A DNA stretch of 46,144 bases from a virus, in the IMG/VR virus record IMGVR_UViG_3300010883_000065, positions 1 through 46,144 of that record. One strand, given 5' to 3'. Under the pieces are notes generated by a model that was not told the origin of the DNA, ran no database searches, and worked only from the letters and a program-made list of their open reading frames with translations. Position numbers and translations under genes: made by a program. Below, one piece after another: positions 610 through 45,568 of this stretch (its first letter is position 1; each line of letters starts with the position of its first letter).

Positions 610-1209
610 ATGAAGAACGTTAACACATATCAAGAATTTCTAAACGAAGGAATAAAATACGAAAAGATCAATCTATTTGATGTCGATGATACTTTGGTTG
701 TAACTAAATCTAAGATAAAAGTTACTGATCATAAAACTGGAAAAACTTACGAGCTAACTCCTAAGGAATTTAACGAATACGAAAACAGTCCAAATCATGA
801 ATTAGATTTTTCTGATTTTCAAAACGCTGAAATACTTAAAGCTGGAAAAATAATCGATTGGGTCTTTGATATACTTAAAGCAACCATGAAAAAAGGTAAA
901 CGAGTTGGTATCGTAACAGCAAGAGATGATTCAAAACTAATATACAATTTTCTTATACATCATGGTGTGGATGTCAATCCTAGATACATATTTGCTATTA
1001 ACGATCCTAAACAAGGATTCACTGGTAATACAGTTGCTTTGCGTAAAAAGGAAGCCTTTCAAAGATTTGTTGAAATGGGCTTTAACGATATAACATTCTT
1101 TGATGATGATAAAGAAAATATAAAACTCGCAAAGGAATTAGATAAAGAAACTCCTGAGCTTAAACTAAAGACACGATGGATACAAAACAAGTGGATTCCA
1201 AAAATATAA
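610..1209 (+). CDS. HAD-superfamily phosphatase with capsid-targeting-like N-terminus
   Basis: This is a 199-aa haloacid-dehalogenase-fold hydrolase, expected to remove phosphate through an aspartyl-phosphate intermediate with Mg2+. The four HAD motifs are visible: FDVDDTL (nucleophile Asp24, acid/base Asp26), IVTARDD (Thr103), a Lys pair at 146-147, and FFDDD (165-167). An insert of about 50 residues after motif I could be a small cap. The substrate is unknown; 5' nucleotides or DNA/RNA 3'-phosphate ends (as in T4 PseT) are possible. Residues 6-13, TYQEFLNE, closely resemble the T4 internal-protein leader MKTYQEFIAE that is cut by the prohead protease, so this enzyme might be packaged in the head. 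The 3' end overlaps the dCMP deaminase gene by 34 bases. Confidence 0.8.
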   Translation: MKNVNTYQEFLNEGIKYEKINLFDVDDTLVVTKSKIKVTDHKTGKTYELTPKEFNEYENSPNHELDFSDFQNAEILKAGKIIDWVFDILKATMKKGKRVGIVTARDDSKLIYNFLIHHGVDVNPRYIFAINDPKQGFTGNTVALRKKEAFQRFVEMGFNDITFFDDDKENIKLAKELDKETPELKLKTRWIQNKWIPKI

Positions 1210-1673
1210 AAATACGCAGATTAGACAAGAAACTTCAAGTCTATTCTGATATCGTTACATCTATTTCGGAACTATCAGCTGCATCAACTAAACGAGTTGG
1301 ATGTATGGCAATTAAAAAGGATTTTAGTAAGATGGCTTCATTCGGATATAATGGATCATATCCAGGTGCTTCAGTTTATGAAGAAACAGGAACTATCGAA
1401 GAATCATTAGAACCAGGACAAAGCGGTTTAATACATGCTGAAATAAATATGGCTGCTAAATTCCAAGAAAATGACCCTGAAAATTATATGGTTATTCTTA
1501 CTCTTAGTCCTTGCAAACATTGTACAAAGGTATTATGTACTGCAGGATTCAAATACATTTATTGGATTGAGGAATATCGAGTAAACGATCATTTTTATAT
1601 TTTAGATGATTGTGGAGTTAAGTATGGTGATATCAAACAATTGGCAATCGACTATCAAAGATACTTTTGGTAA
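1176..1673 (+). CDS. cd: Deoxycytidylate (dCMP) deaminase
   Basis: This zinc enzyme converts dCMP to dUMP, supplying thymidylate synthesis during phage replication. The 165-aa protein has the cytidine-deaminase-fold signature: HAE at 87-89 (zinc ligand His87, proton shuttle Glu89) and PCKHC at 112-116 (zinc ligands Cys113 and Cys116). The length is close to that of other phage dCMP deaminases such as T4 cd. ATG 1176 lies inside the HAD gene (34-base overlap). It is the only upstream ATG that keeps the N-terminal helix and the Cys43 region, so translation is probably coupled. An AT-rich, self-encoded dTTP supply fits the low GC of the genome. ComE-type deaminases share the fold, but phage context favours dCMP. 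Confidence 0.88.
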   Translation: MDTKQVDSKNIKIRRLDKKLQVYSDIVTSISELSAASTKRVGCMAIKKDFSKMASFGYNGSYPGASVYEETGTIEESLEPGQSGLIHAEINMAAKFQENDPENYMVILTLSPCKHCTKVLCTAGFKYIYWIEEYRVNDHFYILDDCGVKYGDIKQLAIDYQRYFW

Positions 1674-12701: not shown

Positions 12702-13514
12702 ATGCAAGTAAGTAGAAAAGACTTTTTTAAGGATAATGTACGTGATGGAAGTTACGTAGGGAAGGTAGTGGATATCGAAGATCCTATAAAGATAGGACGT
12801 GTAAAGGTTGAGGTATTCGGATTTTGGGAAGGATTAGATGTTGCATTAATTCCATGGGCTACTCCATTACAATCTATTACTGCTGGTTCAGATACTGGCG
12901 GTGGATTCTATTCAGTACCTAAATTAAATTCAATAGTAAATGTTAAGTTTGATAATGGAAATACATATTGTCCTCAATATACATGCATCCAACGAATTTC
13001 AGATGAATTAAAAGAAGAAATTAGTGCATCTTACGAAAATGCACATTCGGTAATATACGATACAGAATCTCAACCAGGACCCGTAAAGATTTTCTTTACT
13101 GAAGAAAAGGGATTGATGTTAGATTACAATGGAAGTCAAGTTAATATAAGAAATGATAATACCATTTATATTGAACATAAGGGTGGAAAGGTTATACACG
13201 TTCAAGATAATCATATTAGTATAGGAAAAGAAAATGAATCAGATGAACCAGCAACGTTAGGAGAAAAGAATGTTACCGCGTTAGATGCATTAGCGACTGA
13301 AATCGTAAATTTGTGTGTACTATTAGAAACTTATGCAAAAACACAAACTTCTGTAGTGACTGCTGTTTCACCATTAAGTCCTTTGGCTGTAGCTTTAGGT
13401 TACATGACCGGAGCTGCTGGAGGAATTAAAGCCACTGTAAATAGTAAGATTAAGCCAACTACCATACCAGAAACTCGATCTTCTACTGTTTCAGTAGATG
13501 GACCATCTATGTAA
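12702..13514 (+). CDS. 5: Tail spike/puncturing protein with OB fold (gp5/VgrG-like), no lysozyme domain
   Basis: This is the probable central spike that pierces the outer membrane. Residues about 15-97 form the gp5/VgrG OB fold: GKVVDIEDPIKIGRVKVEVF, then IPWATP and GGGFYSVPKLNSIVNVKFDN. Residues about 120-175 are short beta repeats of spike-stem type (VNIRNDNTIYIEHKGGKVIH), followed by ATLGEKNVTALDAL, often found near the end of such spikes. At 270 aa it is less than half of T4 gp5 (575 aa) and lacks the lysozyme domain entirely. The C-terminal 75 residues are Ala/Thr/Ser-rich. An A-rich leader precedes ATG 12702. The next gene may cap or partner the tip. Confidence 0.75.
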   Translation: MQVSRKDFFKDNVRDGSYVGKVVDIEDPIKIGRVKVEVFGFWEGLDVALIPWATPLQSITAGSDTGGGFYSVPKLNSIVNVKFDNGNTYCPQYTCIQRISDELKEEISASYENAHSVIYDTESQPGPVKIFFTEEKGLMLDYNGSQVNIRNDNTIYIEHKGGKVIHVQDNHISIGKENESDEPATLGEKNVTALDALATEIVNLCVLLETYAKTQTSVVTAVSPLSPLAVALGYMTGAAGGIKATVNSKIKPTTIPETRSSTVSVDGPSM

Positions 13515-13518
13515 AGAA

Positions 13519-13526
13519 ATATATAA
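13519..13526 (+). promoter_or_regulatory. Candidate late promoter box (ATATATAA)
   Basis: AAATATATAATATAAATTAAAAAC lies 29 bases before ATG 13548. It overlaps TATAAATT (13527-13534), one base off the T4 late consensus. Confidence 0.5.
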
Positions 13527-13547
13527 TATAAATTAAAAACTAAAATT

Positions 13548-14036
13548 ATGCCACTATTACCAATCGCTCTATTCACACCACTTTTCGCAGCAATCCAAAC
13601 TGCTGCAGAAGAATCAATGCTTTTATATAACAGAGGACTAGATCCTTGTGATAAAGAAAAGGATATCGTTGCTATGAATTTTTTAGGTGTTGAATTAAAA
13701 GTAAGTGTTGACACTGCAGTGCAGATTGCACAACCTGCCTTAAATATAAATAACAAAACCGAACAATCTATGGGAATAGGAGAGGTTGCTAAAACATTAG
13801 GTGCATCTAACGCTGGCCAAAAAGCTCCTATCGGAACGGTTGATATGGCAAAAGCTGCTGAATTATTCGGTGTGGTATTTGCTGCTAAACTAGCTCCAGT
13901 TTTAACAACACAAATCGATGCATACATAAGAACTGGTTTAGTTCAAACAACGGTTGCTCCTGGAATCTTAACTGCAGGATCTGCTGCAGCACAAGCAACT
14001 ACAACACCTGGAATTGGGACAGGAATTATGATCTAA
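13548..14036 (+). CDS. Ala-rich spike-adjacent protein, 162 aa
   Basis: The family is not firmly recognised. The protein is Ala/Thr/Pro/Gly-rich with a hydrophobic start (MPLLPIALFTPLFAAIQTAA). This could be mistaken for a signal peptide but lacks the usual positive N-terminus. The middle is a helical, Ala-rich domain (about 85-125). The end is a repetitive TAGSAAAQATTTPGIGTGIM segment. Proteins of similar composition sit next to spike genes in other contractile systems, so a role at the spike tip or in spike assembly is plausible. It is not an obvious PAAR protein, since the Pro-Ala-Ala-Arg repeats and the metal-binding His/Cys pattern are absent. Confidence 0.55.
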   Translation: MPLLPIALFTPLFAAIQTAAEESMLLYNRGLDPCDKEKDIVAMNFLGVELKVSVDTAVQIAQPALNINNKTEQSMGIGEVAKTLGASNAGQKAPIGTVDMAKAAELFGVVFAAKLAPVLTTQIDAYIRTGLVQTTVAPGILTAGSAAAQATTTPGIGTGIMI

Positions 14037-14054
14037 ATCCAACAGAAAACCTAG

Positions 14055-14062
14055 ATATATAA
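14055..14062 (+). promoter_or_regulatory. Candidate late promoter box (ATATATAA)
   Basis: CTAGATATATAAACTATT precedes ATG 14091 of the S1-like gene by 36 bases, the longest leader among the boxes, which is notable for a gene encoding an RNA-binding protein. Confidence 0.45.
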
Positions 14063-14090
14063 ACTATTACTAACACCTAAAATAAATTTA

Positions 14091-15263
14091 ATGCCTAAAA
14101 ATAGCTACACCTCCCATATACAACCACTCAAAGATTTTGATTGGGATGCTTTCGAAGCAACAGGAGGACACTTCACACACAATCCAAAAGTAAAAACTAC
14201 CAGTAAACGAGATAAAGTTTTTTCACGATCACCACAAGCCCAAGAAATGTATGATTTTCTTTCAACAACGAAAGAATTAAAAACTCCAGTTCAAGGAGAA
14301 TTAACAAAAGGAACGATAGAATCTATCGGTTCTAGATATGCTTATTTAGATATTGGATGGAGAGAAAGCGCTATTCTAGACTTACACAAAGAAAATTCTG
14401 ATTACATATCGGAATTTCAAGTAGGTATTGAAATAGATATTGTCGTTAAAGCTGCCAATTTATTAGGTAAACAATCGGATATTGAAGTATCATATACAGA
14501 TGCTATCAAACACGTTAAATATAGAGAAATTTACGCATCCATAGGAGGATCTATGGCATATTTAGCTAAAGTAACAGAACTTATACATGGAGGTTACTTC
14601 TTAACTATTGATAGTGTACGAGTATTTATGCCTGGTTCTTTAGGTGGAGTAAATAAATTAGTAAATTTTGAAGAATTATTAGGACAAGAAATTTATGTGT
14701 GTCCTATCAATTATTCTAAAGAAAAAGATTTTATTGTAGTTTCTCATAGAGATTACCTAAGGGCTTTAATACCTTCAGCATTAGATGCATTAGATCCTGG
14801 AGATCATTTCGGTGGATTTGTTACTGGTACAACTAAATTCGGAGTATTCGTTGAATTCAATAAATGTTTAACCGGTTTAATTCACAAAACCGATTTAGAA
14901 GATGATACTCTAGATAAATTTAATAATAGAACACTTAAGCCTGGCGATGAAGTAGACTTTACTATAAAAGAACTAGCTTCTAATAATAGAATTATTTTAA
15001 CACAAAAAGAATTCATACCAGTAATTGATCCATGGGACACAGTATCAGAAAGGTATAAAGCTCCTAGTGAAGTAACTGGTAAAATTAGAAAGAAAACTAA
15101 ATATGGTTTATTTGTAGAATTAGAACCTAAAGTTGTTGGCTTACTACATGTTTCAGATATCCCTGAATTTATTGATTTAGATGGATTAGAAGAAGGTGAA
15201 GATATCATCGTTAAATTGGTAAAAATTGAAGTTGAATCTAAAAAGCTGTTCTTCAAAATCTAA
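14091..15263 (+). CDS. S1-type RNA-binding protein, four repeats (ribosomal protein S1-like)
   Basis: This 390-aa protein carries four S1 (OB-fold) RNA-binding repeats at about residues 66-137, 155-222, 236-306 and 325-390. Repeats 3 and 4 are classical: GGFVTGTTKFGVFVEFNKCL with TGLIHKTDL, and GKIRKKTKYGLFVELEP with VGLLHVSDI. Repeat 2 has the MPGSLGG loop and VVSHRDYLR end found in S1 domain 2. This is the order found in bacterial ribosomal protein S1, which has six repeats in E. coli. The first 60 residues are unlike S1. It has its own promoter-like box and stands between spike and wedge genes. A likely role is binding the AU-rich leaders of phage messages to steer translation; RNA decay or a virion role is possible. 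Confidence 0.88.
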   Translation: MPKNSYTSHIQPLKDFDWDAFEATGGHFTHNPKVKTTSKRDKVFSRSPQAQEMYDFLSTTKELKTPVQGELTKGTIESIGSRYAYLDIGWRESAILDLHKENSDYISEFQVGIEIDIVVKAANLLGKQSDIEVSYTDAIKHVKYREIYASIGGSMAYLAKVTELIHGGYFLTIDSVRVFMPGSLGGVNKLVNFEELLGQEIYVCPINYSKEKDFIVVSHRDYLRALIPSALDALDPGDHFGGFVTGTTKFGVFVEFNKCLTGLIHKTDLEDDTLDKFNNRTLKPGDEVDFTIKELASNNRIILTQKEFIPVIDPWDTVSERYKAPSEVTGKIRKKTKYGLFVELEPKVVGLLHVSDIPEFIDLDGLEEGEDIIVKLVKIEVESKKLFFKI

Positions 15264-15268
15264 CGGGA

Positions 15269-15276
15269 ATATATAA
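15269..15276 (+). promoter_or_regulatory. Candidate late promoter box (ATATATAA)
   Basis: GGGAATATATAACTAAAAATATCCCC, 25 bases before ATG 15294. The GGGAATAT and ATATCCC ends are partly complementary, so the box lies in a potential 7-base stem (GGGATAT-like) that could be a coincidence. Confidence 0.45.
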
Positions 15277-15293
15277 CTAAAAATATCCCCAAT

Positions 15294-16595
15294 ATGGATT
15301 TTAATGCGTTTCAACATTCTTACATTACTAATGCCTCATCTATTGGTCTAGATCTAGATTTTTATTGTAAATTTAGCATCAAAAAGGTTGCTGAGAAATT
15401 TTCTACTGCTTTAGGCTCACCAGTCGAAGTAGTTCAATGGGAAGACTTTACACCCGAATCTGGTAAATTTTACATCAAAGAAGGTTATGGTTATGGTAAA
15501 GAAAGATACTCTTTTGTTTCTTTACCATTGGATTATAGTAGTGCTAGGCAAACTTTAATAAAAGTATTTCAAACTATTAAAGAGTATTGCTATACAGACA
15601 ATACATGTATTGCTCAAGTTGATTATTCTTATGATACTAACTTAGTACCTGAATTAGATATTACTAAGTTAAATATATTAAAGTTTATTTTAGAATTTAA
15701 TGAATCTATGATGTGGAAGTTCTTTCCGGATCAAAAAGATTCTATATATGTAAAGTCTATTAAAAATATAATACCTCAGAATAAATTTTATAGATCAGAA
15801 AACTTAAATATCAATAGCTTTAATTATATTTTACCAAATATGAAATTTTTTGGAGCTAATTTTGAAAGAGTTAAGGAAGGGTTTATCGCATTTAGATATA
15901 TTGGTGGTAAAAATTATGAATATAAAATCACAGAAGCGTTAGATGTAATTGCAGTATACAATTCATTTATATCACGTTCTTTATTCAGTCCAGCATATAC
16001 AGATAAAAATAAATCTGACTTAAAATCACTTTTGAAAAATGCTGATAGGATACTTAAGGCATACGAATCATATAATGGATTTGTTGAGGCGTATCCAAAA
16101 ATTAAATTAACGGTAGACTTAGATGATAATGTTCAAATCATAAAAAGTAAATTTACATCGTTTAGAGATAACATATTTAATTTATTAGCTGCATCTGACT
16201 TAACTGAAGCAAATATAAACTATGATAGTGCAATGTCAAGAATACAAATTGAAAATGCAGATATTCATATTTATGAAATTAAGGAATGGGAATTCATTAA
16301 ATGTAAATTAGTAGTAGAATATGCGTACAATTGCTCGTTTTTTGATTGCGAACTAAATTCCTCATCTTTGAATAAATGCAATTTGTATAGATATAGTAAA
16401 GCTAAAAATTCTAGAATGAAGGATACATATATAAACAAGACGGTAACAATCGAAGATAGTTATATTTATGGGAAGACATCGACGGTTGAAGGTATCATCG
16501 ATGGTGGAATTGTATATGGAGGAAGGGTTGGAAGACATGCACAAATATCTGATCGAACTGAGCTAATAGATTATACAAAAATATATCTTAGATAA
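15294..16595 (+). CDS. Large uncharacterised protein with beta-helix-like C-terminus (possible amidoligase-like domain)
   Basis: The identity is uncertain. Residues 1-300 form an alpha/beta domain with the recognisable runs YGYGKERYSFVSLPLDY, NMKFFGANFERVKEGF and AFRYIGGKNYEYKITEALDV. The F-R-x-IGG-x-x-Y element is reminiscent of amidoligase-type proteins in large phages, but I cannot confirm catalytic residues. From about residue 315 the sequence turns into short beta repeats (HIYEIKEWEFIKCKLVVEYA, NCSFFDCELNSSSLNKCNLY) and then VEGIIDGGIVYGGRVGRHAQ, as in pentapeptide-like or hexapeptide beta-helices, which form trimeric or fibre-like ends. A virion protein is therefore also possible. It has its own promoter box and precedes the wedge genes. 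Confidence 0.45.
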   Translation: MDFNAFQHSYITNASSIGLDLDFYCKFSIKKVAEKFSTALGSPVEVVQWEDFTPESGKFYIKEGYGYGKERYSFVSLPLDYSSARQTLIKVFQTIKEYCYTDNTCIAQVDYSYDTNLVPELDITKLNILKFILEFNESMMWKFFPDQKDSIYVKSIKNIIPQNKFYRSENLNINSFNYILPNMKFFGANFERVKEGFIAFRYIGGKNYEYKITEALDVIAVYNSFISRSLFSPAYTDKNKSDLKSLLKNADRILKAYESYNGFVEAYPKIKLTVDLDDNVQIIKSKFTSFRDNIFNLLAASDLTEANINYDSAMSRIQIENADIHIYEIKEWEFIKCKLVVEYAYNCSFFDCELNSSSLNKCNLYRYSKAKNSRMKDTYINKTVTIEDSYIYGKTSTVEGIIDGGIVYGGRVGRHAQISDRTELIDYTKIYLR

Positions 16596-16610: not shown

Positions 16611-17435
16611 ATGACTGCAAAAAAGACAACAAGTAAAAAGTTTGGAAATGTTTATAATGGACAGATTCCAGAGAATCAAACATCCGAGGATGCTTTTGTA
16701 GCAGAGGTGCAGCAAGAACTAACAGTTTCTTGTGCATTGCCATTTTCAGTACCAGTAACAGAAATACAAAGAATAATCAAATACGCTGCTAAATGGTTCT
16801 ATAAAAAATATGAGTATTCTGTACAGGAAAGATATTATGTAATCCCACAAGAGAATTTTGATAAAATACCTACATATGCACAATACGGTACTCTTAAAAT
16901 GCCTGATTGTATTTTTTCAATTATTGCAGTAAGACAATGTAAAGATGGATTTAGTTTATATGATCCTTTGAAGAGTATGCCTGATTTTTCTTTAGAAAAG
17001 GTTTTGTTTAAGGATATTTACACAATCGATGGTTCTACCGAAGCATTAATGTATGCAACCATTTATCAGTCTTGGATAGATTTAGCAAGTCATATTTTAT
17101 TCCATCCGATGAGTTATAACTTTAATACTAATTCTAAAGAACTTGTATTTTTAGGAGAAAAACCACAAAACGATGTAGTAATAACAGTATACGAAGAATT
17201 ACCTATAGGATATTTGTTTAAGGATGAGATATTCTTTAGATATGTATGTGCAAAAGCAAAAACTCAATTATCTCGTGTACTTGGTACATTTGCATTTAAT
17301 CTTCCTGGAGGAGTGACTATAAATTATGATTTATTAAGAGAGGAAGGTATGGGTGCATTAGAAAAAATTGAAGAGGAAATAAAAACTGACGAAGGGATGG
17401 ATTGGTTCTTCACTTCTGGAAATGACAACAAATAA
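16611..17435 (+). CDS. Structural protein, baseplate- or neck-associated, 274 aa
   Basis: This looks like a virion connector protein, but no T4 gene can be named. The N-terminal 30 residues are basic and flexible. A helical stretch follows (VPVTEIQRIIKYAAKWFYKK, about 47-66), then a beta domain with SWIDLASHILFHPMSYNFN (about 150-168) and VITVYEELPIGYLFKDEIFF. The helical end has VCAKAKTQLSRVLGTF, LPGGVTINYD and an acidic EKIEEEIKTDEGMDWFF. Connectors and tail completion proteins of large phages often show this LPGG-x-x-x-NYD pattern followed by an acidic helix. It lies 15 bases after the previous gene and directly before gp25. Confidence 0.5.
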   Translation: MTAKKTTSKKFGNVYNGQIPENQTSEDAFVAEVQQELTVSCALPFSVPVTEIQRIIKYAAKWFYKKYEYSVQERYYVIPQENFDKIPTYAQYGTLKMPDCIFSIIAVRQCKDGFSLYDPLKSMPDFSLEKVLFKDIYTIDGSTEALMYATIYQSWIDLASHILFHPMSYNFNTNSKELVFLGEKPQNDVVITVYEELPIGYLFKDEIFFRYVCAKAKTQLSRVLGTFAFNLPGGVTINYDLLREEGMGALEKIEEEIKTDEGMDWFFTSGNDNK

Positions 17436-17477: not shown

Positions 17478-17840
17478 ATGAATATAGATATTTACGCTAG
17501 AAATCCTGCCGATCCAAATTATGTAGATAATTTGCTAGAAATGGAAGATAGCTTAAACTTATTTAAGCAACAAATAGAAAGTGTTCTTTTTACTCAGAAA
17601 ACTGCAGTAATGGGAACGCAAGATTTTGGATGTAGTCTAGATGAATACATTTGGACGTTTGTGACTTCTGGCGATGATATAAAGCAGGAGATTGCAAGAC
17701 AGGTGGATCAATTCTGTAGTATGGCAAGGAATTTTTCCTATTCGGTAGATGTTAATTTCTATCGAGGAAATATACGTGATATAGCAGAGATACAAATAGA
17801 AATAAATGGAACAGATAGATTTGCTGTTCTCATGGGATAA
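17478..17840 (+). CDS. 25: Baseplate wedge protein gp25-like
   Basis: This 120-aa protein has the size and layout of the gp25 / GpW-gp25 family, the most widely conserved wedge protein of contractile injection machines; it helps polymerise the sheath onto the baseplate. The N-terminus ends in NLFKQQIESVLFTQKTAVMG, followed by QDFGCSLDEYIW. This replaces the usual PDFGSxLxxxLFEP region, so the EPR-type motif of the family is not preserved. The C-terminal strands (RNISYSVD-like RNFSYSVDVNFY, IAEIQIEINGTDRF) fit the fold. It is directly followed by gp6, as in T4-like and R-type systems. The hairpin upstream may tune its expression. Confidence 0.82.
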   Translation: MNIDIYARNPADPNYVDNLLEMEDSLNLFKQQIESVLFTQKTAVMGTQDFGCSLDEYIWTFVTSGDDIKQEIARQVDQFCSMARNFSYSVDVNFYRGNIRDIAEIQIEINGTDRFAVLMG

Positions 17841-17857
17841 AAATTATACGAATTTAG

Positions 17858-19684
17858 ATGGCGAACGGAAACAAAAACTTTTTAGAGACCGATAAAATTA
17901 CATTTGCGGCTTTGGTTAATCAAACCCAAGAGTATTTAGTAAAGGCATATAATAGAGCTAGATCTATTTTTACACCAGCCTCACCATTTGGTCAAATTTT
18001 ACAAGTTGTACAAAACTTAACTCAATTGGTTATTTTCTATATTGAAGATGCCTTAGTAGAATTAAATATCTACACGGCATTCAAAGAAAGATCTGTATAT
18101 GGTTTAGCTAGATTAGCTGGACATAACCCAACTCGAGCAATAACTGCTAGAGGTACATTTACGTTATCAATAAAACCTGGAGCTGTTACAGATATTGCTG
18201 CTCCTTATGTTTTTATTTTTAATAATACTAAAATAGTTAATCAAAATACTATGCTACCATATTTGATTAAAATAGATAATGTCCAAGAAAAAGCAAAAAT
18301 AGATCTGAATTCTAGTCTCTCATTTAATTATCGCGTAGTGCAAGGCGAGATTGAGGAACAAACGGTAATTGCAGATGGAAAGAATTTACAAAGTTATAAC
18401 TTTACATCTAGTAAATTTATTGATAACGATTTAGTTGATGTTTTCGTTAATGGCGAGCAATTTGGTATTGTAGATTCTTTATACGATTTAACTAAAGATG
18501 AAAAGGGTGTAATTCTAAAAACTGGAATAAATGATGGAATCGATATTTATTTTGGTAATGAAGATTGGGGATATGTACCTTCGCAAGGAACAAACATAAC
18601 CGTTAAATACGTAACAACTGCTGGAGTAAGAGGAAACTTATTTGCGAGATCTAATATATTAACTTGGAAATTTGATACAAAAGGAACTAGTAATATAGGA
18701 GAAGAGGTTGATTTGAACGATGTATTTAACGTAGCTGTTGAAACTCCATTAGTTTTAGGATCTGGAGAAGAGGAATTAGATTTAACTAGACTTATCGCAC
18801 CAAAAACTTCAAGAGCACTAGTCTTAGCAAATACAGATAATTATATAGCCTTTTTATCTAGATTTGATTTTTCTTATGTTAATGCATATACAACTTATGA
18901 TGATGAATACTTAGATGATGATAACGTTATTTATTTATTTTTATTACCAAATGTTCAAAGTAGATTATCTACTGATAGTGATTATTATACAACACCAGAG
19001 ACTAACTTTTATTTAGATGGTGAAGAAAAAACTGCATTGTATACTTACATACAAAAAAGCGGAAGACAAATTGTTAGTACAGAATTAAGTGTAGTTGATC
19101 CTATAATTACACGATACGCTCTTAATATAAGTCTTAGAGTTTTTGATGGAACCGATATAGATGGAATGAGATCTGATATACTATCAGTATTATCTGAATA
19201 CTTCTTACGAGTTCAACGTCGAGATGCTATACCAAAATCTGATATAATTGCTATACTAGAAACAATAAATGGTGTAGATTCTTGTAATATCGAATTTGTT
19301 TCCCAAGTTAACGAAGAAGCTATTACTAATGGTTATTATTTCAAAACTACTTACGAAATAGATACCATACGATCGTTAAAAATACCAATAACTACACAGG
19401 TGACTTTACAAACACAAACAATTGATAATGTCACAACCGTTATAGAAGATCCTAAATTAGGTCTAGATAAATTTGGTGATATTAAAATAGGACTAAATGA
19501 ATTACCTATTATGAGAGGAGGATGGAAAGACCGTAATGGAGTAGAATACGTAGTTGACATAAAGAATAATAATATCTCATCCGTTAATATCATGGTTGAC
19601 GAAGTAATTGATGAAAATTTATCTGCAAAAATCATGGCACAAAACAAAAACATTTTAATAAACAATGAGCGTAAAAGATCCTAA
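17858..19684 (+). CDS. 6: Baseplate wedge protein gp6-like (baseplate J family)
   Basis: This is the large wedge protein that forms the ring of the baseplate with gp25 and gp7. The 608-residue length is near T4 gp6 (660). The N-terminal helical part (about 15-85) includes ASPFGQILQVVQNLTQLVIF and SVYGLARLAGHNPTRAITAR, the Gly/Pro start common to gp6/baseplate-J proteins. Beta-rich domains follow, then a C-terminal region (about 400-530) with YALNISLRVFDGTDIDGMRS and RDAIPKSDIIAILETINGVD, the typical baseplate-J pattern of a pairing domain. The gp25-gp6 order is strongly conserved. The last 20 bases overlap the next small gene. Confidence 0.75.
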   Translation: MANGNKNFLETDKITFAALVNQTQEYLVKAYNRARSIFTPASPFGQILQVVQNLTQLVIFYIEDALVELNIYTAFKERSVYGLARLAGHNPTRAITARGTFTLSIKPGAVTDIAAPYVFIFNNTKIVNQNTMLPYLIKIDNVQEKAKIDLNSSLSFNYRVVQGEIEEQTVIADGKNLQSYNFTSSKFIDNDLVDVFVNGEQFGIVDSLYDLTKDEKGVILKTGINDGIDIYFGNEDWGYVPSQGTNITVKYVTTAGVRGNLFARSNILTWKFDTKGTSNIGEEVDLNDVFNVAVETPLVLGSGEEELDLTRLIAPKTSRALVLANTDNYIAFLSRFDFSYVNAYTTYDDEYLDDDNVIYLFLLPNVQSRLSTDSDYYTTPETNFYLDGEEKTALYTYIQKSGRQIVSTELSVVDPIITRYALNISLRVFDGTDIDGMRSDILSVLSEYFLRVQRRDAIPKSDIIAILETINGVDSCNIEFVSQVNEEAITNGYYFKTTYEIDTIRSLKIPITTQVTLQTQTIDNVTTVIEDPKLGLDKFGDIKIGLNELPIMRGGWKDRNGVEYVVDIKNNNISSVNIMVDEVIDENLSAKIMAQNKNILINNERKRS

Positions 19685-27143: not shown

Positions 27144-30100
27144 ATGGCGGATACAAATATAGACTTTAGTACTAAGTACTCTTTATCATCTTTACTTAAT
27201 AATCTTTTACGAATTAACCAAAATTCGTTAGAGATCTTGAATAAGTTATCTAATATCACAACTACGGATGCTGATATGGTTGAGATTGATGTGTTAGATT
27301 CTAATAATCAAGTAAGTAAAATATACGTTCCTAGTTATGGCCAAATAAAGGCAGACATAAATAGAATCGATAATAATATAAAACAAATTTCTGGAATAGG
27401 AGATTCAAACGCTAATGTTCAATTAGAAGATGGTTCATTTAGAAAATTGATTCAATCGAATTTAATGATTGAAGGTAATACGTTAACCCAAATGAATTTA
27501 CCTACTACATTTGAATCTAAAACGAATTGGTTCTTTGAGAGTTTTTTGAATCCTCTATTATACGTTTCATTTAATTTTACCGGACAGATACCTAGTGATA
27601 CAGAAAGATGTAAAGTTCAGAGATTTATACTTAATATAACTACTCCTTTACAATTGAACGTTTGGAATAACAGCATAAATAAAAAGTCAAATTTAGATTA
27701 TGTAACGTTCTTTCAATTATTACTTGCAAATAACATAACATACTTTTTAGATGAAGATGTTGTTGATATGCCTCCAAGAGATCTTAGATATTATGGAGCA
27801 TTTATTGCAAATCGAGTATTTGATGATGACGTTATAACTCTTGTTGATGGAGTTTCTACTTCAAAAAGAAAATTTAGAATTCAACTTAATACTGTAAATT
27901 ATAATGATTCTACTTCAGAATACTCAAAAACTCAACAACTTAAAATTGGAGATTCTATTGTTATTGTAACTGAAGGTACTCAAAAGAATACAAGATACCA
28001 AATTACTAATATAGATTTAGATAATGGAAACGTTGTAGAATTAAAATTGTTAGAAGGTTTTGATACAATTGCAATTGGAACAAAATTTCAATTCTATAGT
28101 GCCGATATAACAGCAACAAATTTAGACTTAAATATAGGATTCAACGAATATAATGTAGTATTTGTAAAACCTATCAATCCAGTTTCTAAAATACCTGCGT
28201 TAGAATGGTCACCAGGTGCTGCCTTTTATACAAATGGTTTAGAAATTATTGATGAAGCAGGTAATAAAATAACTTTAGAAGAATACTATAAAGATCAAGT
28301 AGTTGATTTTGGAGTATTTTTATATAATATGGCTAAGGATGGAATTCCACCTGCAACTTTAGCAGAAACTCCATTAAAGCCTACCGTTTCAGCAACTGAT
28401 TTTAAGGTTGCTCAAATAAATAATCATATTACTGATGTGGCTATTATTTCTACTATCAAATCTCTGCAATCTGAGAAAATAAAATTAGCTGGTGAATTAG
28501 ATTCTCTTAATTCTTCTATCAAGAAGAAAAAAGCAGAAATGAATACTAAACGATATACATCACAACCTCAACGTGATACAGATCAAGCAGAATTAAATGA
28601 TTTAATAAATAGAAGTTCTTCTGCATCGACTCTTTTGAAATCTAGTGTAGATGAAATCTTATCATTATCTGATTCTGGTAATTTAGGTGCAGTATCTCCT
28701 AAATTTAGAATTAAAGGATTCTGGCCAATGCCTGATCAAGTGGCTGCAGCAAGAACAGGTCCTCAAAGTGTAATTCAATTTAGAGTTGCATATAGGTATA
28801 TTACTAAAGATGGTGGTGCAAATCAACCTCAACAAATAGGATTCAAAGATAACACAGGTGTAGAACGTAGAGGTACCTTTTCTTCGTGGGAAGAATTCCT
28901 TACTCCAGTTAGAAAGAGATCCAAGAATGCTACAACAGGAAACTATGAATGGGATATAGAAAACGTAGAAAATGCTGATGTTGTAAATATCAATCAATTA
29001 GAAATTCCTATTAGACAAGGTGAAGGAGTTGAAATTAAGATAAAATCTATTTCAGAAGCTGGATGGCCAGCTAATCCTGCAGAATCTGCATGGTGTGATA
29101 TTGTTAAAGTAGATTTTCCAGATGAATTGATATCATCAAATGAAATAAGTACAATAATCGAGCAATCTAAAATTGCTTCAGAATCATTAGAATTAACTGC
29201 TACCTTAGCAGATACCGGAGTTACTGAACATATATCAGAACAATTTACTCAAAATGAATCATTCTATGCTCATCCATCTGGATCTATTGCATCAGGATTT
29301 TTAACAGATGAGCAAAACGTAATTAACTTATTTGAAAAATTAAGCGATTTTGAAACTCGAATAAAACAAATCGAAGAAGCAATAACCGGTGAAAAAGGAA
29401 TTCTCGGTGTTACGATCTTAGATTCAAAACAAAGAGAATATCGAGTTAAGAAAAATACACTAGTTCAATTATTCGCAGGTAACTATAGAGATCAAGTTCA
29501 AAGTTTAACATTACCTAAAGGTGCAATAATGAGTAAAACATACTTATTGCAATTAACTAATATAAATGCTACTCCATTAGAATTATACTCAAGAGAATTT
29601 GGTAATTATACTAAGGTTGTAAATTCTACAACACCGTTAGGTACAGGATTTAATGCAAATGAAATTGATTACAATACTGCTAGAAGATATGATGTGGTTC
29701 CTTTAGGACCAAGTAATCCTTCTACTGATGATACTTTAACGTATTCTCAATTTAGAAACTTACCTTTACAATCGAGTCAAGTTAAAGGACAATTTATAAA
29801 CACAAGATATCAAACGGTCGATGGTACTTCAAATTTATATGAAGATATTACAACATCTATCGGTGGAACACCGGCTGCAACATTAGCGGTGTCAGCGACG
29901 AATAACTTCCCAATTCCTTCTATAGCAACTCCGTTAACCAATTATACTCAACATGAATATACACTATCCTCAGAATATGATGCTGGTGGTGCTTTACCTG
30001 CTAATACAGGTAATGTTGCAGGAGACTTTATTTGGAGTGGTATTATGAATGGTGGAGTTGCAGAAACAGTAAATACATCAGTAGTGAGTGGTATCGTTGG

Positions 30101-30848
30101 TGGTTGGAACGATGGAATTTACGTACACAATATACATCCATCTATTACAGATGGTGATTGGGGTACTGTTGGTGCAACACAAGGAATCGGTTCAACTGGA
30201 GCTGCAGGACCTACAGGAGTTAGAAATTCTGGATTTGCTCCATTAGCCTCTACAGATCTTACCGGTGGAGGTAGAAAACAAGCTGCATATTTTTGGTACG
30301 ATACATTAGTTGGACCTACTGCGGCTAAGGTAAGTAAAATGTCCTATTCATCATACGATCAATATCTACTAGGTCCTAATTCGTGCGGTGCTTATTTATT
30401 CCTATCACCAACAAATTTATCTGGTGCAATTAATGTATCCGGTGCTAATCAACTTTCTACAAGAACTTTAGATTTTGGAAATCAACATACTCTAAATATA
30501 CCTTTAGTATATCAATACAGAATGACTGACTTTTTCGGAGATAATACAAACGGTTTAGGTAATATCGGCGGAGATCCTACCGGTACAGTTAATCAAGTTG
30601 AATATACAAAAAGGCTTGGAATAGATATTTATTCAAATATAGACGAAAGATATTCTTTCGATGTTGAAATAACTGCAAGATATCGTTCGGTATCTCTACA
30701 AATGGAGGAAGTTCCATCAACTAGTCTAACAAACGTTGTAGATGATTTAACTAGAACTGTTAGAGTATTGAATCCTAAAATTTCGGGAGTATCAGCAGAA
30801 AGTTCAACCAATAGTAATAACAGCGGTAATTTACTAGGATCTATATAA
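27144..30848 (+). CDS. Large baseplate/fibre structural protein with coiled-coil and FN3-like domain, 1234 aa
   Basis: This is a virion protein with four visible parts. The helical N-terminus (about 10-45: SLSSLLNNLLRINQNSLEIL) may dock to the baseplate. A large beta-rich region follows. A coiled coil at about 425-510 (KSLQSEKIKLAGELDSLNSS then DLINRSSSASTLLKSSVDEI) comes next. Then there is a segment at about 520-660 resembling a fibronectin-type domain, including SEAGWPANPAESAWCDIVKV. The C-terminal 500 residues are beta-rich, with Gly/Thr loops such as GSTGAAGPTGV. It starts 12 bases after the previous gene. The likely role is an elongated fibre or wedge extension; the family is not recognised. 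Confidence 0.55.
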   Translation: MADTNIDFSTKYSLSSLLNNLLRINQNSLEILNKLSNITTTDADMVEIDVLDSNNQVSKIYVPSYGQIKADINRIDNNIKQISGIGDSNANVQLEDGSFRKLIQSNLMIEGNTLTQMNLPTTFESKTNWFFESFLNPLLYVSFNFTGQIPSDTERCKVQRFILNITTPLQLNVWNNSINKKSNLDYVTFFQLLLANNITYFLDEDVVDMPPRDLRYYGAFIANRVFDDDVITLVDGVSTSKRKFRIQLNTVNYNDSTSEYSKTQQLKIGDSIVIVTEGTQKNTRYQITNIDLDNGNVVELKLLEGFDTIAIGTKFQFYSADITATNLDLNIGFNEYNVVFVKPINPVSKIPALEWSPGAAFYTNGLEIIDEAGNKITLEEYYKDQVVDFGVFLYNMAKDGIPPATLAETPLKPTVSATDFKVAQINNHITDVAIISTIKSLQSEKIKLAGELDSLNSSIKKKKAEMNTKRYTSQPQRDTDQAELNDLINRSSSASTLLKSSVDEILSLSDSGNLGAVSPKFRIKGFWPMPDQVAAARTGPQSVIQFRVAYRYITKDGGANQPQQIGFKDNTGVERRGTFSSWEEFLTPVRKRSKNATTGNYEWDIENVENADVVNINQLEIPIRQGEGVEIKIKSISEAGWPANPAESAWCDIVKVDFPDELISSNEISTIIEQSKIASESLELTATLADTGVTEHISEQFTQNESFYAHPSGSIASGFLTDEQNVINLFEKLSDFETRIKQIEEAITGEKGILGVTILDSKQREYRVKKNTLVQLFAGNYRDQVQSLTLPKGAIMSKTYLLQLTNINATPLELYSREFGNYTKVVNSTTPLGTGFNANEIDYNTARRYDVVPLGPSNPSTDDTLTYSQFRNLPLQSSQVKGQFINTRYQTVDGTSNLYEDITTSIGGTPAATLAVSATNNFPIPSIATPLTNYTQHEYTLSSEYDAGGALPANTGNVAGDFIWSGIMNGGVAETVNTSVVSGIVGGWNDGIYVHNIHPSITDGDWGTVGATQGIGSTGAAGPTGVRNSGFAPLASTDLTGGGRKQAAYFWYDTLVGPTAAKVSKMSYSSYDQYLLGPNSCGAYLFLSPTNLSGAINVSGANQLSTRTLDFGNQHTLNIPLVYQYRMTDFFGDNTNGLGNIGGDPTGTVNQVEYTKRLGIDIYSNIDERYSFDVEITARYRSVSLQMEEVPSTSLTNVVDDLTRTVRVLNPKISGVSAESSTNSNNSGNLLGSI

Positions 30849-30864
30849 TATGAATAAATAAACT

Positions 30865-33800
30865 ATGAGCAAAGCAATTCTACAAAAAACATCATTTGGT
30901 TTAGTTAGGACAAATCCTAAACTTTCCACTAACGTGAAGATTGTTACGAGTAGTAATGATCAGTTATATTTAGAATCATTCTCTGCAACAAAGGAATTAT
31001 CTAAATCTAAATACAAAGGGTTTCCGGTTTCTAGTTCTAGTGATTATTATATGGATCTATACAGATTCTATAATCAGAATACTACTACTATAAAAGCTGA
31101 TGCATATGCATTGAACGTTAAGGATCAGAGCCTTTCCGTAAAGGAGAGATATGGCGATCAATATAATAATTTCTATAATTACGGAGCTCAACCTAAACCG
31201 TCTCAATTATATACCGAAGAGTATTCTTTACTTGCTCCTTTATGGGTTGAACCTAATAACCTTCCTGATTATTTTGTTATTTTTAGAACAGAAGATCCTG
31301 TATCAGTTAGTACTAAAACGACTACGATTGAAGATGATCCAACAATTACAGACTTAGTTAAAAACCCTCAATACGTTACTGATAATATAATAAAGAAGAG
31401 TCGAATTGTAACAGCATTTGATTTGACCGAAAAAACTAATTTAGGCCGATATATTAGAAATCACGCGGGTAGTGCTCTATTTCCGGAAAGTTCTATATTA
31501 GTAGATTGGGAAAAAAATAGATATTTTCGATATCTAGGAATGTCAATAGATAAACCAGGATTCACCGAAAAAACTAAGGAAATGTTTTTTGAAACATGGC
31601 CTAACGATAAAACTATATCAGAATATGAAAGTATAGTAACAAATGGGTTTGCTGAATTAGGTATTGTTCAGGCAAATCTATTAAACATGGAATTCTTATT
31701 TGACGATTCGGATACAACTGATTATCAATTCTATAGATACTATGGATTTTATATGAATGCATACGATTATTCTACGTTTAAGTTAGATGGAGATGCATTG
31801 TTTAGTGATAGATTTAATCAATCTAATCAAGTTCCTATTCCGGTACAAGATGACATAGGATATCCTGCTAATGTTAAAGATCAAAAACAAACTAATACAT
31901 CTGGTATAGTATTGTATCCAAAATTAGTTGGATCTACTTCTATAGGAGCTTCTTTCTTTAAGAATGAAATGGTATATAATCAATCTAGATATGGCTATGT
32001 TCAGGATGCATCTGGAGAATTTCATAAAATAAGAACAGATAACCAATTTCCGTATGGACAAATTAAATTAGATGAGACTAGCGTAAATTGGAAAAATTTT
32101 ACAGGATTCAGTGCACCTGATAATTATATTCCTGCAGAATTAAACTTAAAGGCTCAAGGGAGACCTGCATGTGTAATTGAATTTAAGTATATTCCGTTAG
32201 ATGATGATGAATTTAGAATTTATTTTACAGATACTAACGATCCTGCAAGTTTACCATATATAGATGTATTTACTATAACAGCATCTTCTACTATCCCAGT
32301 TGGAACTTCAGTATCTAATTTATATAGTAGTCAAGGTACATTAAAAGAAATAGCTGCAGCATTTGCAGATTGCGTTAATAAACGACATACCTACTTCCAA
32401 GATTTAATTTCAGTTGGTGCATGCGCAATGGGAACGAAAGTCGTAATTTTTTCTAGAGTTGCTAGTGCCACTTGGAATAAAATTAAAGTAACGTCATTTG
32501 CCCAGGCTACATCGGTAGATGAGGTTGGAATACATTTAATTTCTGGATTCCCTAATGGTTATAATGCTGGTGGATATATGAGCAGTCCTCAACCCTTTAC
32601 TGCAGTTAACGGATGGTTCGCAAAAGGTACTTTCGTAGGTGGTAATGATAATGCTAGAGCAAAAGTTAAAATTAGCAAGGATTCAACCGAGTTAATTTCT
32701 AGTAATAATTATTTAGTTGCCGAAGACAAATCTATACAAAAGGTAGATAATATAGTTCCTTATTTAGATGAACCTCAGGTTAACGGTGAAGGTCAAATCG
32801 TATCATTTAAGGATATGAATGCTTACTATACGGTTAATATAGTTGATACAAAAAGAAATATCCTATTAGATTCATCAAAGCAGGTTGTAGTATTATCAGA
32901 AAGAACTAATACCGCTGGTTTATTTTCATTCTTCCCAGTTAAAGATTTTGATTTTGATAGATTTTCTACTCAATATAAAAAGGATGCTGATGCATCAGTT
33001 TCTAAATTAAATGATTGGTATCTTGGAGTTACTGGTCCTTATGGAGACGTAACAAATTTTTGTTCTACTGCTATTGGAGCTAGCGGAACAACTGCTTGGG
33101 TAGATCCTATTATAGGAATCAATTCTCCATTTGTAGCTAGTGGTGGATATCAAGGATTGGCTGGAATTGGAGATATATTTAGAGATACAGATAGTACAGT
33201 ATATAATGAATATGATAGATTAAAAGAAAATGATGTAAAACAATTAGCATTAGATGGTAGAGTTGTTCCGTTTATAAATAAATGGGTTTATGATGATGAT
33301 GGTTTAGATGTAAGACAAAATCCATATAGATTAGATGCTACAGCTGCATTTAGATATCCAAATTTTGGACCATCTCATAGAGAATTTACTAGAAATCCTA
33401 AATTCTTTACACACGAATGGTATTACTTACAAAAGTATCCTCCATATATGGGATTTGATGAAAGAAAAGAATCATTCTCATATTTTGATAGTGCTATAAA
33501 CGTTGGTGGCACCGCTATGAATAATACAGCAGATCCTAATTATGGACTTGCAACAGTTACAGGAACCACTTCATCTACTTTAACAAAAATACCAGATTAT
33601 TTTACTGATTATTTTGTTCGAACTATGATTGGTGCAACCGCAGTTTCAACGGATATAAAATATAGTACGTTTGCATATGGTACTGATCGAAGATTTTCAG
33701 AAACATTTTTTAGAGGAGCTAAGGTTGTTATAAAACCACGTATAGACAATTCTGCGATTAACTATAATTTACAAAATATAAAATATCAGCAGAGCACAAA

Positions 33801-44548: not shown

Positions 44549-44551
44549 CGA

Positions 44552-44567
44552 ATATATAATATAAATA
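44552..44567 (+). promoter_or_regulatory. Late promoter candidate (ATATATAA plus TATAAATA)
   Basis: AATATATAATATAAATAAAACAC precedes ATG 44579. The ATATATAA core (44552-44559) is followed by an exact TATAAATA (44560-44567), combining the two box types seen elsewhere. Confidence 0.5.
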
Positions 44568-44578
44568 AAACACTAAAA

Positions 44579-44944: not shown

Positions 44945-45568
44945 ATGAATTTAGTCGCAATAGACTTTTCAATCACATCTACCGCAGTATGCATCTCTAC
45001 TCCAGAAAAAATACATTGGTTTAGTTTTGTTTCAAATTTAGATCTTAATAAAAAATCATTCAGAGTACATAAAGACTTATCAGACTTAGGTTTGAATATG
45101 ATAGGATATGAAAGAAACAAACCTAAGGAGATTTCTTACACAGAAGAACAATCATTCAAACTTAATAATGCAAACTATTTATCTTATTGTATAATAAATG
45201 CCATAGGTCCATATATCGATGAAGATACTATATTCGGGATTGAGGGATATAGTTATGGTTCTCGTGGTAACGCATTTATAGATCTCATCTCTTACAATAC
45301 ATTCCTCAAATCTAAAATCTTACGAGTATCTGAAAGAGATTTATTAGTATTTGCTCCTAAAACTATTAAGAAAGCTTTTACTAGTAATGGTAATGCTGGT
45401 AAACCTATGATGGTACAAACATTTTGTGAACGTGAGAGCGATGAACTTCTCAACGATCCTTTTCATGAATATGTGAAGTGTGCGGCTTATGGCGATAACA
45501 TCCCTAAACCAATTGACGATCTAGTCGATGCTTTTGCAATAATGGAATACTTAAAAGATTATAGCTGA
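44945..45568 (+). CDS. RuvC-like Holliday junction resolvase/nuclease
   Basis: The 207-aa protein has the RNase H-fold signature of RuvC-type resolvases. The first strand is NLVAIDFSITSTAV (Asp7), then FGIEGYSYGSRGNAFIDLIS (Glu100). Next comes a basic helix near PKTIKKAFTSNGNAGKP, where substrate contacts occur in the family. The acidic end is IDDLVDAFAIMEYL (Asp191/Asp192, Asp195). Large phages often use this family instead of T4 gp49 to resolve branched DNA before packaging. Alternatively it could be a related RNase H-fold nuclease with another target. It follows the 115-aa late gene by 18 bases and precedes an intergenic gap. Confidence 0.72.
   Translation: MNLVAIDFSITSTAVCISTPEKIHWFSFVSNLDLNKKSFRVHKDLSDLGLNMIGYERNKPKEISYTEEQSFKLNNANYLSYCIINAIGPYIDEDTIFGIEGYSYGSRGNAFIDLISYNTFLKSKILRVSERDLLVFAPKTIKKAFTSNGNAGKPMMVQTFCERESDELLNDPFHEYVKCAAYGDNIPKPIDDLVDAFAIMEYLKDYS

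What the first reader, a model, noticed from the sequence alone, without database searches (positions are those of the whole stretch)
14091..15263. A four-repeat ribosomal S1-like protein within a late tail operon
Four S1 repeats in the order of ribosomal protein S1 domains are seen directly (repeats 3 and 4 have clear GVFVEF/GLFVEL and GLIHKTDL/GLLHVSDI motifs). The gene is flanked by spike and wedge genes and has its own promoter-like box. Bacteroidota messages mostly lack Shine-Dalgarno sites and phage leaders here are AU-rich, so an S1 paralogue made late could redirect ribosomes to phage mRNA. Phage-encoded ribosomal proteins are known, but a multi-domain S1 between baseplate genes is unusual. 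The functional link is inference.
Basis: partly seen in the sequence, partly recalled or inferred. Interest (0 to 1): 0.75.

Follow-up and report, generated by a model that had tools for sequence, protein, structure and literature searches.

The report
Phage-encoded four-domain ribosomal protein S1
A large Bacteroidota-type tailed phage carries, among its tail genes, its own four-domain version of the bacterial ribosomal protein S1, one of hundreds in an old viral S1 family that keeps the key ribosome- and RNA-contacting residues and so probably helps phage messages onto the host's ribosomes.

Summary
ORF 14091-15263 (390 aa) is a true bS1 homologue: rpsA models match residues 26-386 (2e-49), E. 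coli bS1 OB1-OB4 aligns (6e-35), and the AlphaFold model's best PDB match is 30S-bound bS1 (1e-25). It lies in a tail/baseplate module.

New here:
(1) One viral S1 clade (100/100 support), at least 550 viral contigs.
(2) The slot spike > S1 > 15294 > neck is invariant in close relatives (68/68 downstream, 54/54 upstream). Other huge phages keep S1 beside tail-tube or other tail-module genes. Lak phages have it among replication/RNA genes, and cultured relatives with related wedge genes lack it, so it is not an obligate baseplate part.
(3) It keeps an N-terminal FxW motif typical of Bacteroidia S1, the E. coli Lys43 equivalent that contacts uS2 (basic in 59/61) and mRNA-contacting aromatics (61/61); dN/dS 0.05-0.11.
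(4) Ten of 20 S1-phage records also encode bS21.
(5) None of 37 window genes has an SD-like site, but S1-less relatives also lack SD.

Ribosome binding is inferred, not shown.

The parts
14091..15263 (+). Viral bS1 homologue, 390 aa, four S1/OB domains
14136..14156 (+). N-terminal FDWDAFE motif (aa 16-22), Bacteroidia-type FxW motif, predicted helix 18-23; likely ribosome anchor (inferred)
14181..14276 (+). Segment aa 31-62 with motif NxxxKT...KVFSxxPxAQExYD, conserved in most of this clade and in Lak, absent from bacterial S1; helix 50-62
14292..14498 (+). OB1 (aa 68-136, approximate), uS2-docking domain by homology; Arg91 (14361-14363) equals E. coli Lys43
   Evidence: PMC10123108
14553..14756 (+). 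OB2 (aa 155-222, approximate); Tyr169 and Phe179 equal the mRNA-contacting E. coli Phe120 and Phe130
   Evidence: PMC10123108
14793..15008 (+). OB3 (aa 235-306, approximate), VTGTTKFGVFVEF ... GLIHKTD
15057..15260 (+). OB4 (aa 323-390, approximate), KYGLFVEL ... GLLHVSD
14037..14090 (+). 54-bp leader, A-rich, no SD; holds an ATATATAA box of unproven meaning
12702..13514 (+). Baseplate spike/hub (Phage_base_V, gp5/VgrG-like), conserved upstream neighbour
13548..14036 (+). Unknown 162-aa protein, recognised only in the closest relatives (5 hits in the related loci)
15294..16595 (+). Unknown 433-aa protein, invariant downstream neighbour of S1
16611..17435 (+). Neck / head-tail adaptor (Ad2-like)
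17478..17840 (+). gp25-like baseplate wedge protein (weak Pfam match)
17858..19684 (+). gp6-like baseplate wedge protein

Best explanation
The gene encodes a viral paralogue of ribosomal protein bS1, taken in the distant past from a bacterial bS1, most likely of a Bacteroidia host, and reduced to OB1-OB4. Made with the tail genes late in infection (inferred from position), it docks on the host 30S platform through its N-terminal anchor and OB1 (the uS2 site), in place of or beside host bS1. With OB2-OB4 it captures single-stranded, A-rich, SD-less phage leaders and delivers them to the decoding centre, biasing initiation to phage mRNAs when virion proteins are mass-produced. Shown: homology, domain order, residue conservation, purifying selection, viral clade, tail-module location. 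Inferred: donor, timing, ribosome docking, mRNA preference.
For: Full-length match to rpsA models and to E. coli bS1 D1-D4; fold match to 30S-bound bS1. FxW motif shared with Bacteroidia S1 and absent from S1 outside the phylum. Basic residue at the Lys43 site in 59/61 and aromatics at the Phe120 and Phe130 sites in 61/61 phages (roles in PMC10123108). dN/dS 0.05-0.11. 0/37 SD-like sites and A-rich leaders. bS21 co-encoded in 10 of 20 S1-phage records, and phage bS21 is expressed late with structural genes in Bacteroidetes phages (PMC9723584). Added F. johnsoniae bS1 gave a 2-fold higher reaction amplitude on one SD-less mRNA in vitro (PMC9976891). In Lak the gene lies among replication and RNA genes, and cultured relatives with related wedge genes lack it: it acts apart from the baseplate.
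Against: No direct evidence of ribosome binding. Scores are far below rpsA cut-offs. The tree gives a long branch and no donor. The E. coli Phe5/Phe9 helix is not clearly matched, Phe79 is not conserved and Lys117 is lost. FxW is missing in LR756500 and the 634-735 kb phages. SD absence is not specific to S1 phages. Strong linkage to tail genes in most lineages would also fit a tail role.
Confidence: 0.62

Rival explanations
1. It acts as an RNA-binding protein off the ribosome: an mRNA chaperone or translational regulator, for example of the tail operon or of phage RNA processing and decay, using S1 domains without replacing bS1.
For: S1 domains serve in many non-ribosomal RNA-binding proteins; Lak S1 neighbours tRNA-His guanylyltransferase and RNA ligase; OB3-OB4 are the best conserved.
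Against: OB1, including the uS2-contact residue, is kept under selection, as is the Bacteroidia-type N-terminal motif; a pure RNA chaperone would not need these.
Confidence: 0.17
2. It is a virion or tail-assembly protein: an S1-derived OB-repeat protein that is part of the tail/baseplate or helps assemble it, or is packaged in the virion and injected.
For: Invariant slot between spike and neck/wedge genes (68/68 and 54/54); in other huge-phage lineages it lies behind the tail tube/sheath (25 loci) or behind genes 27144/30865 (30 loci). Virion packaging has been suggested for phage bS21.
Against: Five cultured relatives with related wedge (and mostly neck) genes lack it; in Lak it is outside the tail genes; its RNA- and uS2-contact residues are conserved; no tail protein appears among the PDB fold matches listed.
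Confidence: 0.15
3. It is a decoy that occupies the uS2 site and shuts off host translation instead of promoting phage translation.
For: It lacks OB5-OB6 of the host's six-domain protein.
Against: A late-module position is late for host shut-off. OB2-OB4 RNA-contact residues are kept. Four-domain bS1 is normal in Actinobacteria and Firmicutes (PMC6705787).
Confidence: 0.05

Closest known systems
rpS1 of huge phages (Al-Shayeb et al. 2020, PMC7162821)
   Same: The LR/Lak records that match here are huge phages; S1-domain proteins were reported in huge phages, with rare SD sites and a proposed role in initiation.
   Different: That text does not describe one viral clade, a fixed tail-module slot, the Bacteroidia-type motif or the residue tests; here at least 550 contigs, many from smaller fragments, are added.
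Ribosomal protein bS1 (rpsA), Bacteroidia type
   Same: OB1-OB4 in order, FxW motif, uS2- and mRNA-contact residues.
   Different: 24-30% identity, four instead of six OB domains, its own deep clade, extra conserved segment aa 31-54, below rpsA cut-offs.
Phage bS21 of Bacteroidetes phages (PMC9723584)
   Same: Platform ribosomal protein, encoded among structural genes; proposed to redirect ribosomes late.
   Different: A different protein; bS21 is small and was shown to be transcribed late. The two co-occur in 10 of 20 S1-phage records.
bS1 of Microcystis jumbo phage PhiMa05 (PMC13157829)
   Same: Phage-encoded bS1.
   Different: Reported as part of a six-protein set acquired from a Vampirovibrio-like host; very distant by sequence (the Microcystis phage MaAM05 rpsA matches a clade member at 24%, E=4e-4).

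Membership tests
Ribosomal protein bS1 (rpsA) | Several S1/OB domains collinear with bS1 OB1-OB4 | tested here: met
Ribosomal protein bS1 (rpsA) | Score over the curated rpsA equivalog cut-off | tested here: not met
   168 bits against 624; 156 against 524; 130 against 368
Ribosomal protein bS1 (rpsA) | uS2-docking residues: N-terminal aromatic helix (Phe5, Phe9), Lys43, Phe79 | tested here: inconclusive
   Lys43 site basic in 59/61; Phe5/Phe9 sites mostly Leu/Met and Tyr/Leu; Phe79 not kept
Ribosomal protein bS1 (rpsA) | mRNA-contact aromatics of OB2 (Phe120, Phe130) | tested here: met
   61/61 aromatic at both sites; Lys117 is lost
Ribosomal protein bS1 (rpsA) | Binds the 30S subunit and supports initiation | not testable with these tools
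   needs purified protein and ribosomes
Bacteroidia bS1 | N-terminal F[DN]W motif before OB1 | tested here: met
   FDWDAFE at aa 16-22; 14/14 Bacteroidia-like S1s have FxW, none outside the phylum
Bacteroidia bS1 | Six OB domains | tested here: not met
   four domains, 390 aa (PMC6705787)
Bacteroidia bS1 | Nested among Bacteroidia S1 in a tree | tested here: not met
   phage clade separate, 100/100, on a long branch
Viral S1 clade (huge-phage rpS1) | Groups with S1 of LR756500, Lak and the 634-735 kb phages apart from bacterial S1 | tested here: met
   shared FMP[GN]xLAGxNKL and VTGTTxFGVFVEF signatures
Virion structural protein | Match to a known tail or baseplate family | tested here: not met
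   no PHROG tail family, only a weak nuclease S1 hit; no tail protein among the PDB fold matches listed
Virion structural protein | Present in purified virions | not testable with these tools
   needs proteomics

The most novel reading that the evidence does not exclude
A core, vertically kept viral bS1 lineage, co-inherited with the tail module of a broad group of large Bacteroidota phages, that together with phage bS21 rebuilds the host's 30S mRNA-entry platform late in infection, giving phage-specialised ribosomes for SD-less virion mRNAs.
Probability: 0.3. Interest if true: 0.8.

Novelty: new member of a known kind. Interest (0 to 1): 0.5.

Why it matters
Ribosomes of Bacteroidia ignore Shine-Dalgarno sites, and how mRNAs are chosen there is an open question. 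A conserved phage S1 that keeps the Bacteroidia-type N-terminal motif and is often paired with phage bS21 gives a concrete, testable handle on that, and on how large phages take over translation. The wide and ordered distribution (at least 550 contigs) makes it a family worth biochemistry rather than a one-off acquisition.

Tried and rejected
SD absence as evidence for S1 function: rejected as unspecific, since S1-less relatives show the same.

Obligate baseplate part: rejected, because five cultured relatives lack S1 and Lak has it elsewhere.

Own promoter: left open.

Tracing the donor by tree: failed, because the phage clade sits on a long branch; the closest bacterial hits by score are of mixed phyla at 24-30%.

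The first phylum sample showed mostly sister classes without FxW because the best-scoring loci were listed; further regions were fetched to see Bacteroidia.

A resemblance between the phage YAQELYD segment and the E. coli FAQLFEE uS2 helix was noticed; the alignment places them about one helix turn apart, so it is not used as evidence.

Records such as 'Acinetobacter phage MD-2021a' carry an ordinary rpsA annotation and were set aside.

Full report
What is there. It matches Pfam S1 (6e-20; two stretches, OB3 and OB4) and the NCBIfam rpsA models over residues 26-386 (2e-49 and weaker). It aligns with E. coli bS1 domains 1-4 in order (residues 58-357, 6e-35). An AlphaFold model from 39 own and related sequences (mean pLDDT 82.5, pTM 0.54) shows four OB barrels plus two N-terminal helices (18-23 and 50-62). 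Foldseek's best solved structures are bS1 in 30S mRNA-delivery complexes (1e-25); among predicted viral proteins the best are phage S1 proteins, first that of Virus NIOZ-UU157 (38% identity). The score is far below the rpsA equivalog cut-offs, so it is a divergent homologue.

Surroundings. Upstream are an unknown gene (13548) and a gp5/VgrG-like spike (12702). Downstream come an unknown 433-aa protein (15294), a neck/adaptor protein (16611; annotated 'neck protein' in PTm1), and gp25-like and gp6-like wedge proteins (17478, 17858). A sheath-like gene (41683; inferred from its place beside the tube and a homologous pair in LR756504) and a tube gene (43880) lie near the window's right end. The 46-kb record is a viral contig, probably a fragment.

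Relatives. Among the 80 closest loci (42 S1s distinct at under 90% identity), S1 is followed by 15294 and 16611 in 68 of 68 testable cases and preceded by the spike in 54 of 54 (full table). A second scan seeded with the 634-735 kb phages gave 59 loci: 25 have S1 behind the tail tube/sheath, 30 behind homologues of window genes 27144 and 30865, 1 in the spike slot, 3 with none of these in the fetched stretch. Lak phages differ: S1 lies beside tRNA-His guanylyltransferase, DnaB-like helicase and RNA ligase genes. PTm1, pT24, PAU, MA9V-2 and MaF61, which have homologues of the wedge protein (and, except MaF61, of the neck protein), have no S1 match in their whole genomes. So S1 is strongly linked to tail modules, but it is neither confined to them nor needed for them.

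Ancestry. All 29 phage S1s form one clade (100/100) apart from 43 bacterial S1s, on a very long branch. The tree does not show the donor. A shared trait does suggest one: an F[DN]W motif about 30 residues before OB1 is present in all 14 S1s with at least 60% identity to Hoylesella and in two others with less, and absent from the remaining S1s sampled in the phylum and from every S1 sampled outside the phylum. It is present in 50 of 61 phage S1s, including Lak and the window (FDWDAFE). One caution: one of the two search patterns contained this motif. However, several Bacteroidota S1s that do not fit that pattern (for example L106, L129, L130, L154) carry FDW too, and the sample did not use it.

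Function-bearing residues. In E. coli, bS1 docks on uS2 through its N-terminal helix and Lys43, and OB2 touches mRNA through Phe120 and Phe130 (PMC10123108). The phage equivalents are Arg91 (Arg/Lys in 59 of 61), Tyr169 (aromatic in 61 of 61, where Bacteroidia have Leu/Met) and Phe179 (61 of 61); Lys117 is lost. Close pairs show dN/dS of 0.05-0.11, so the protein is under strong purifying selection. OB5 and OB6 of the host protein are missing; Bacteroidetes bS1 has six domains (PMC6705787).

Translation setting. None of 37 window genes has an SD-like site, and leaders are 59-70% A at many positions from -17 to -7. This fits Bacteroidota initiation, but it does not single out S1, because S1-less relatives look the same. 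Ten of 20 S1-phage records also encode bS21, including all four distinct phages over 630 kb; many of the other records are fragments, so absence in them means little. bS21 neighbours bS1 on the platform, and in Bacteroidetes phages it lies among structural genes and is expressed late (PMC9723584).

Mechanism and rivals. The best reading is a viral bS1 made with the tail proteins that docks on the 30S and favours SD-less, A-rich phage mRNAs (0.62). Rivals are an off-ribosome RNA binder (0.17), a virion or tail-assembly role (0.15) and a host shut-off decoy (0.05). Ribosome docking, timing and mRNA choice are inferred.

Known or new. Phage S1 and the hijack hypothesis were published in 2020 (PMC7162821: S1 in huge phages, rarely with SD). 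In the papers found I saw no description of the single viral S1 clade, the invariant spike-to-neck slot, the recurrent tail linkage in other lineages, the Bacteroidia-type N-terminal motif, or the residue-level conservation; the paper library is incomplete, so this is not proof of novelty. I file it as a new member of a known kind.

Noticed in passing
window 14181-14252 (aa 31-54); also L008, L021, L037: A segment NxxxKT...KVFSxxPxAQExYD between the FxW motif and OB1 is conserved from this clade to Lak, is predicted ordered, and has no counterpart in bacterial S1; its role is unknown.
   Followed up: partly
L174-L183 (records W08-W11, G005-G009, G011): Ten S1-encoding phage records also carry bS21.
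   Followed up: partly
window 27144-30848 and 30865-36687: Two very large uncharacterised proteins (1234 and 1940 aa) whose homologues sit together just upstream of S1 in 634/642-kb phages and their relatives.
   Followed up: partly
window 610-1673 and 44945-45568: Polynucleotide kinase-like and dCMP deaminase-like genes at the left end, and a RuvC-like Holliday junction resolvase at the right end, flank the structural genes.
   Followed up: no
genomes G040, G044, G060, G076: Four genomes drawn from the phylum have a second, shorter S1-like gene (238-273 bits) besides rpsA.
   Followed up: no
window intergenic DNA, e.g. 14037-14090, 15264-15293, 13515-13547, 44549-44578: ATATATAA boxes recur upstream of genes (7 against 0.95 expected); a possible phage promoter element, but within what AT-rich simulations can reach.
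   Followed up: partly
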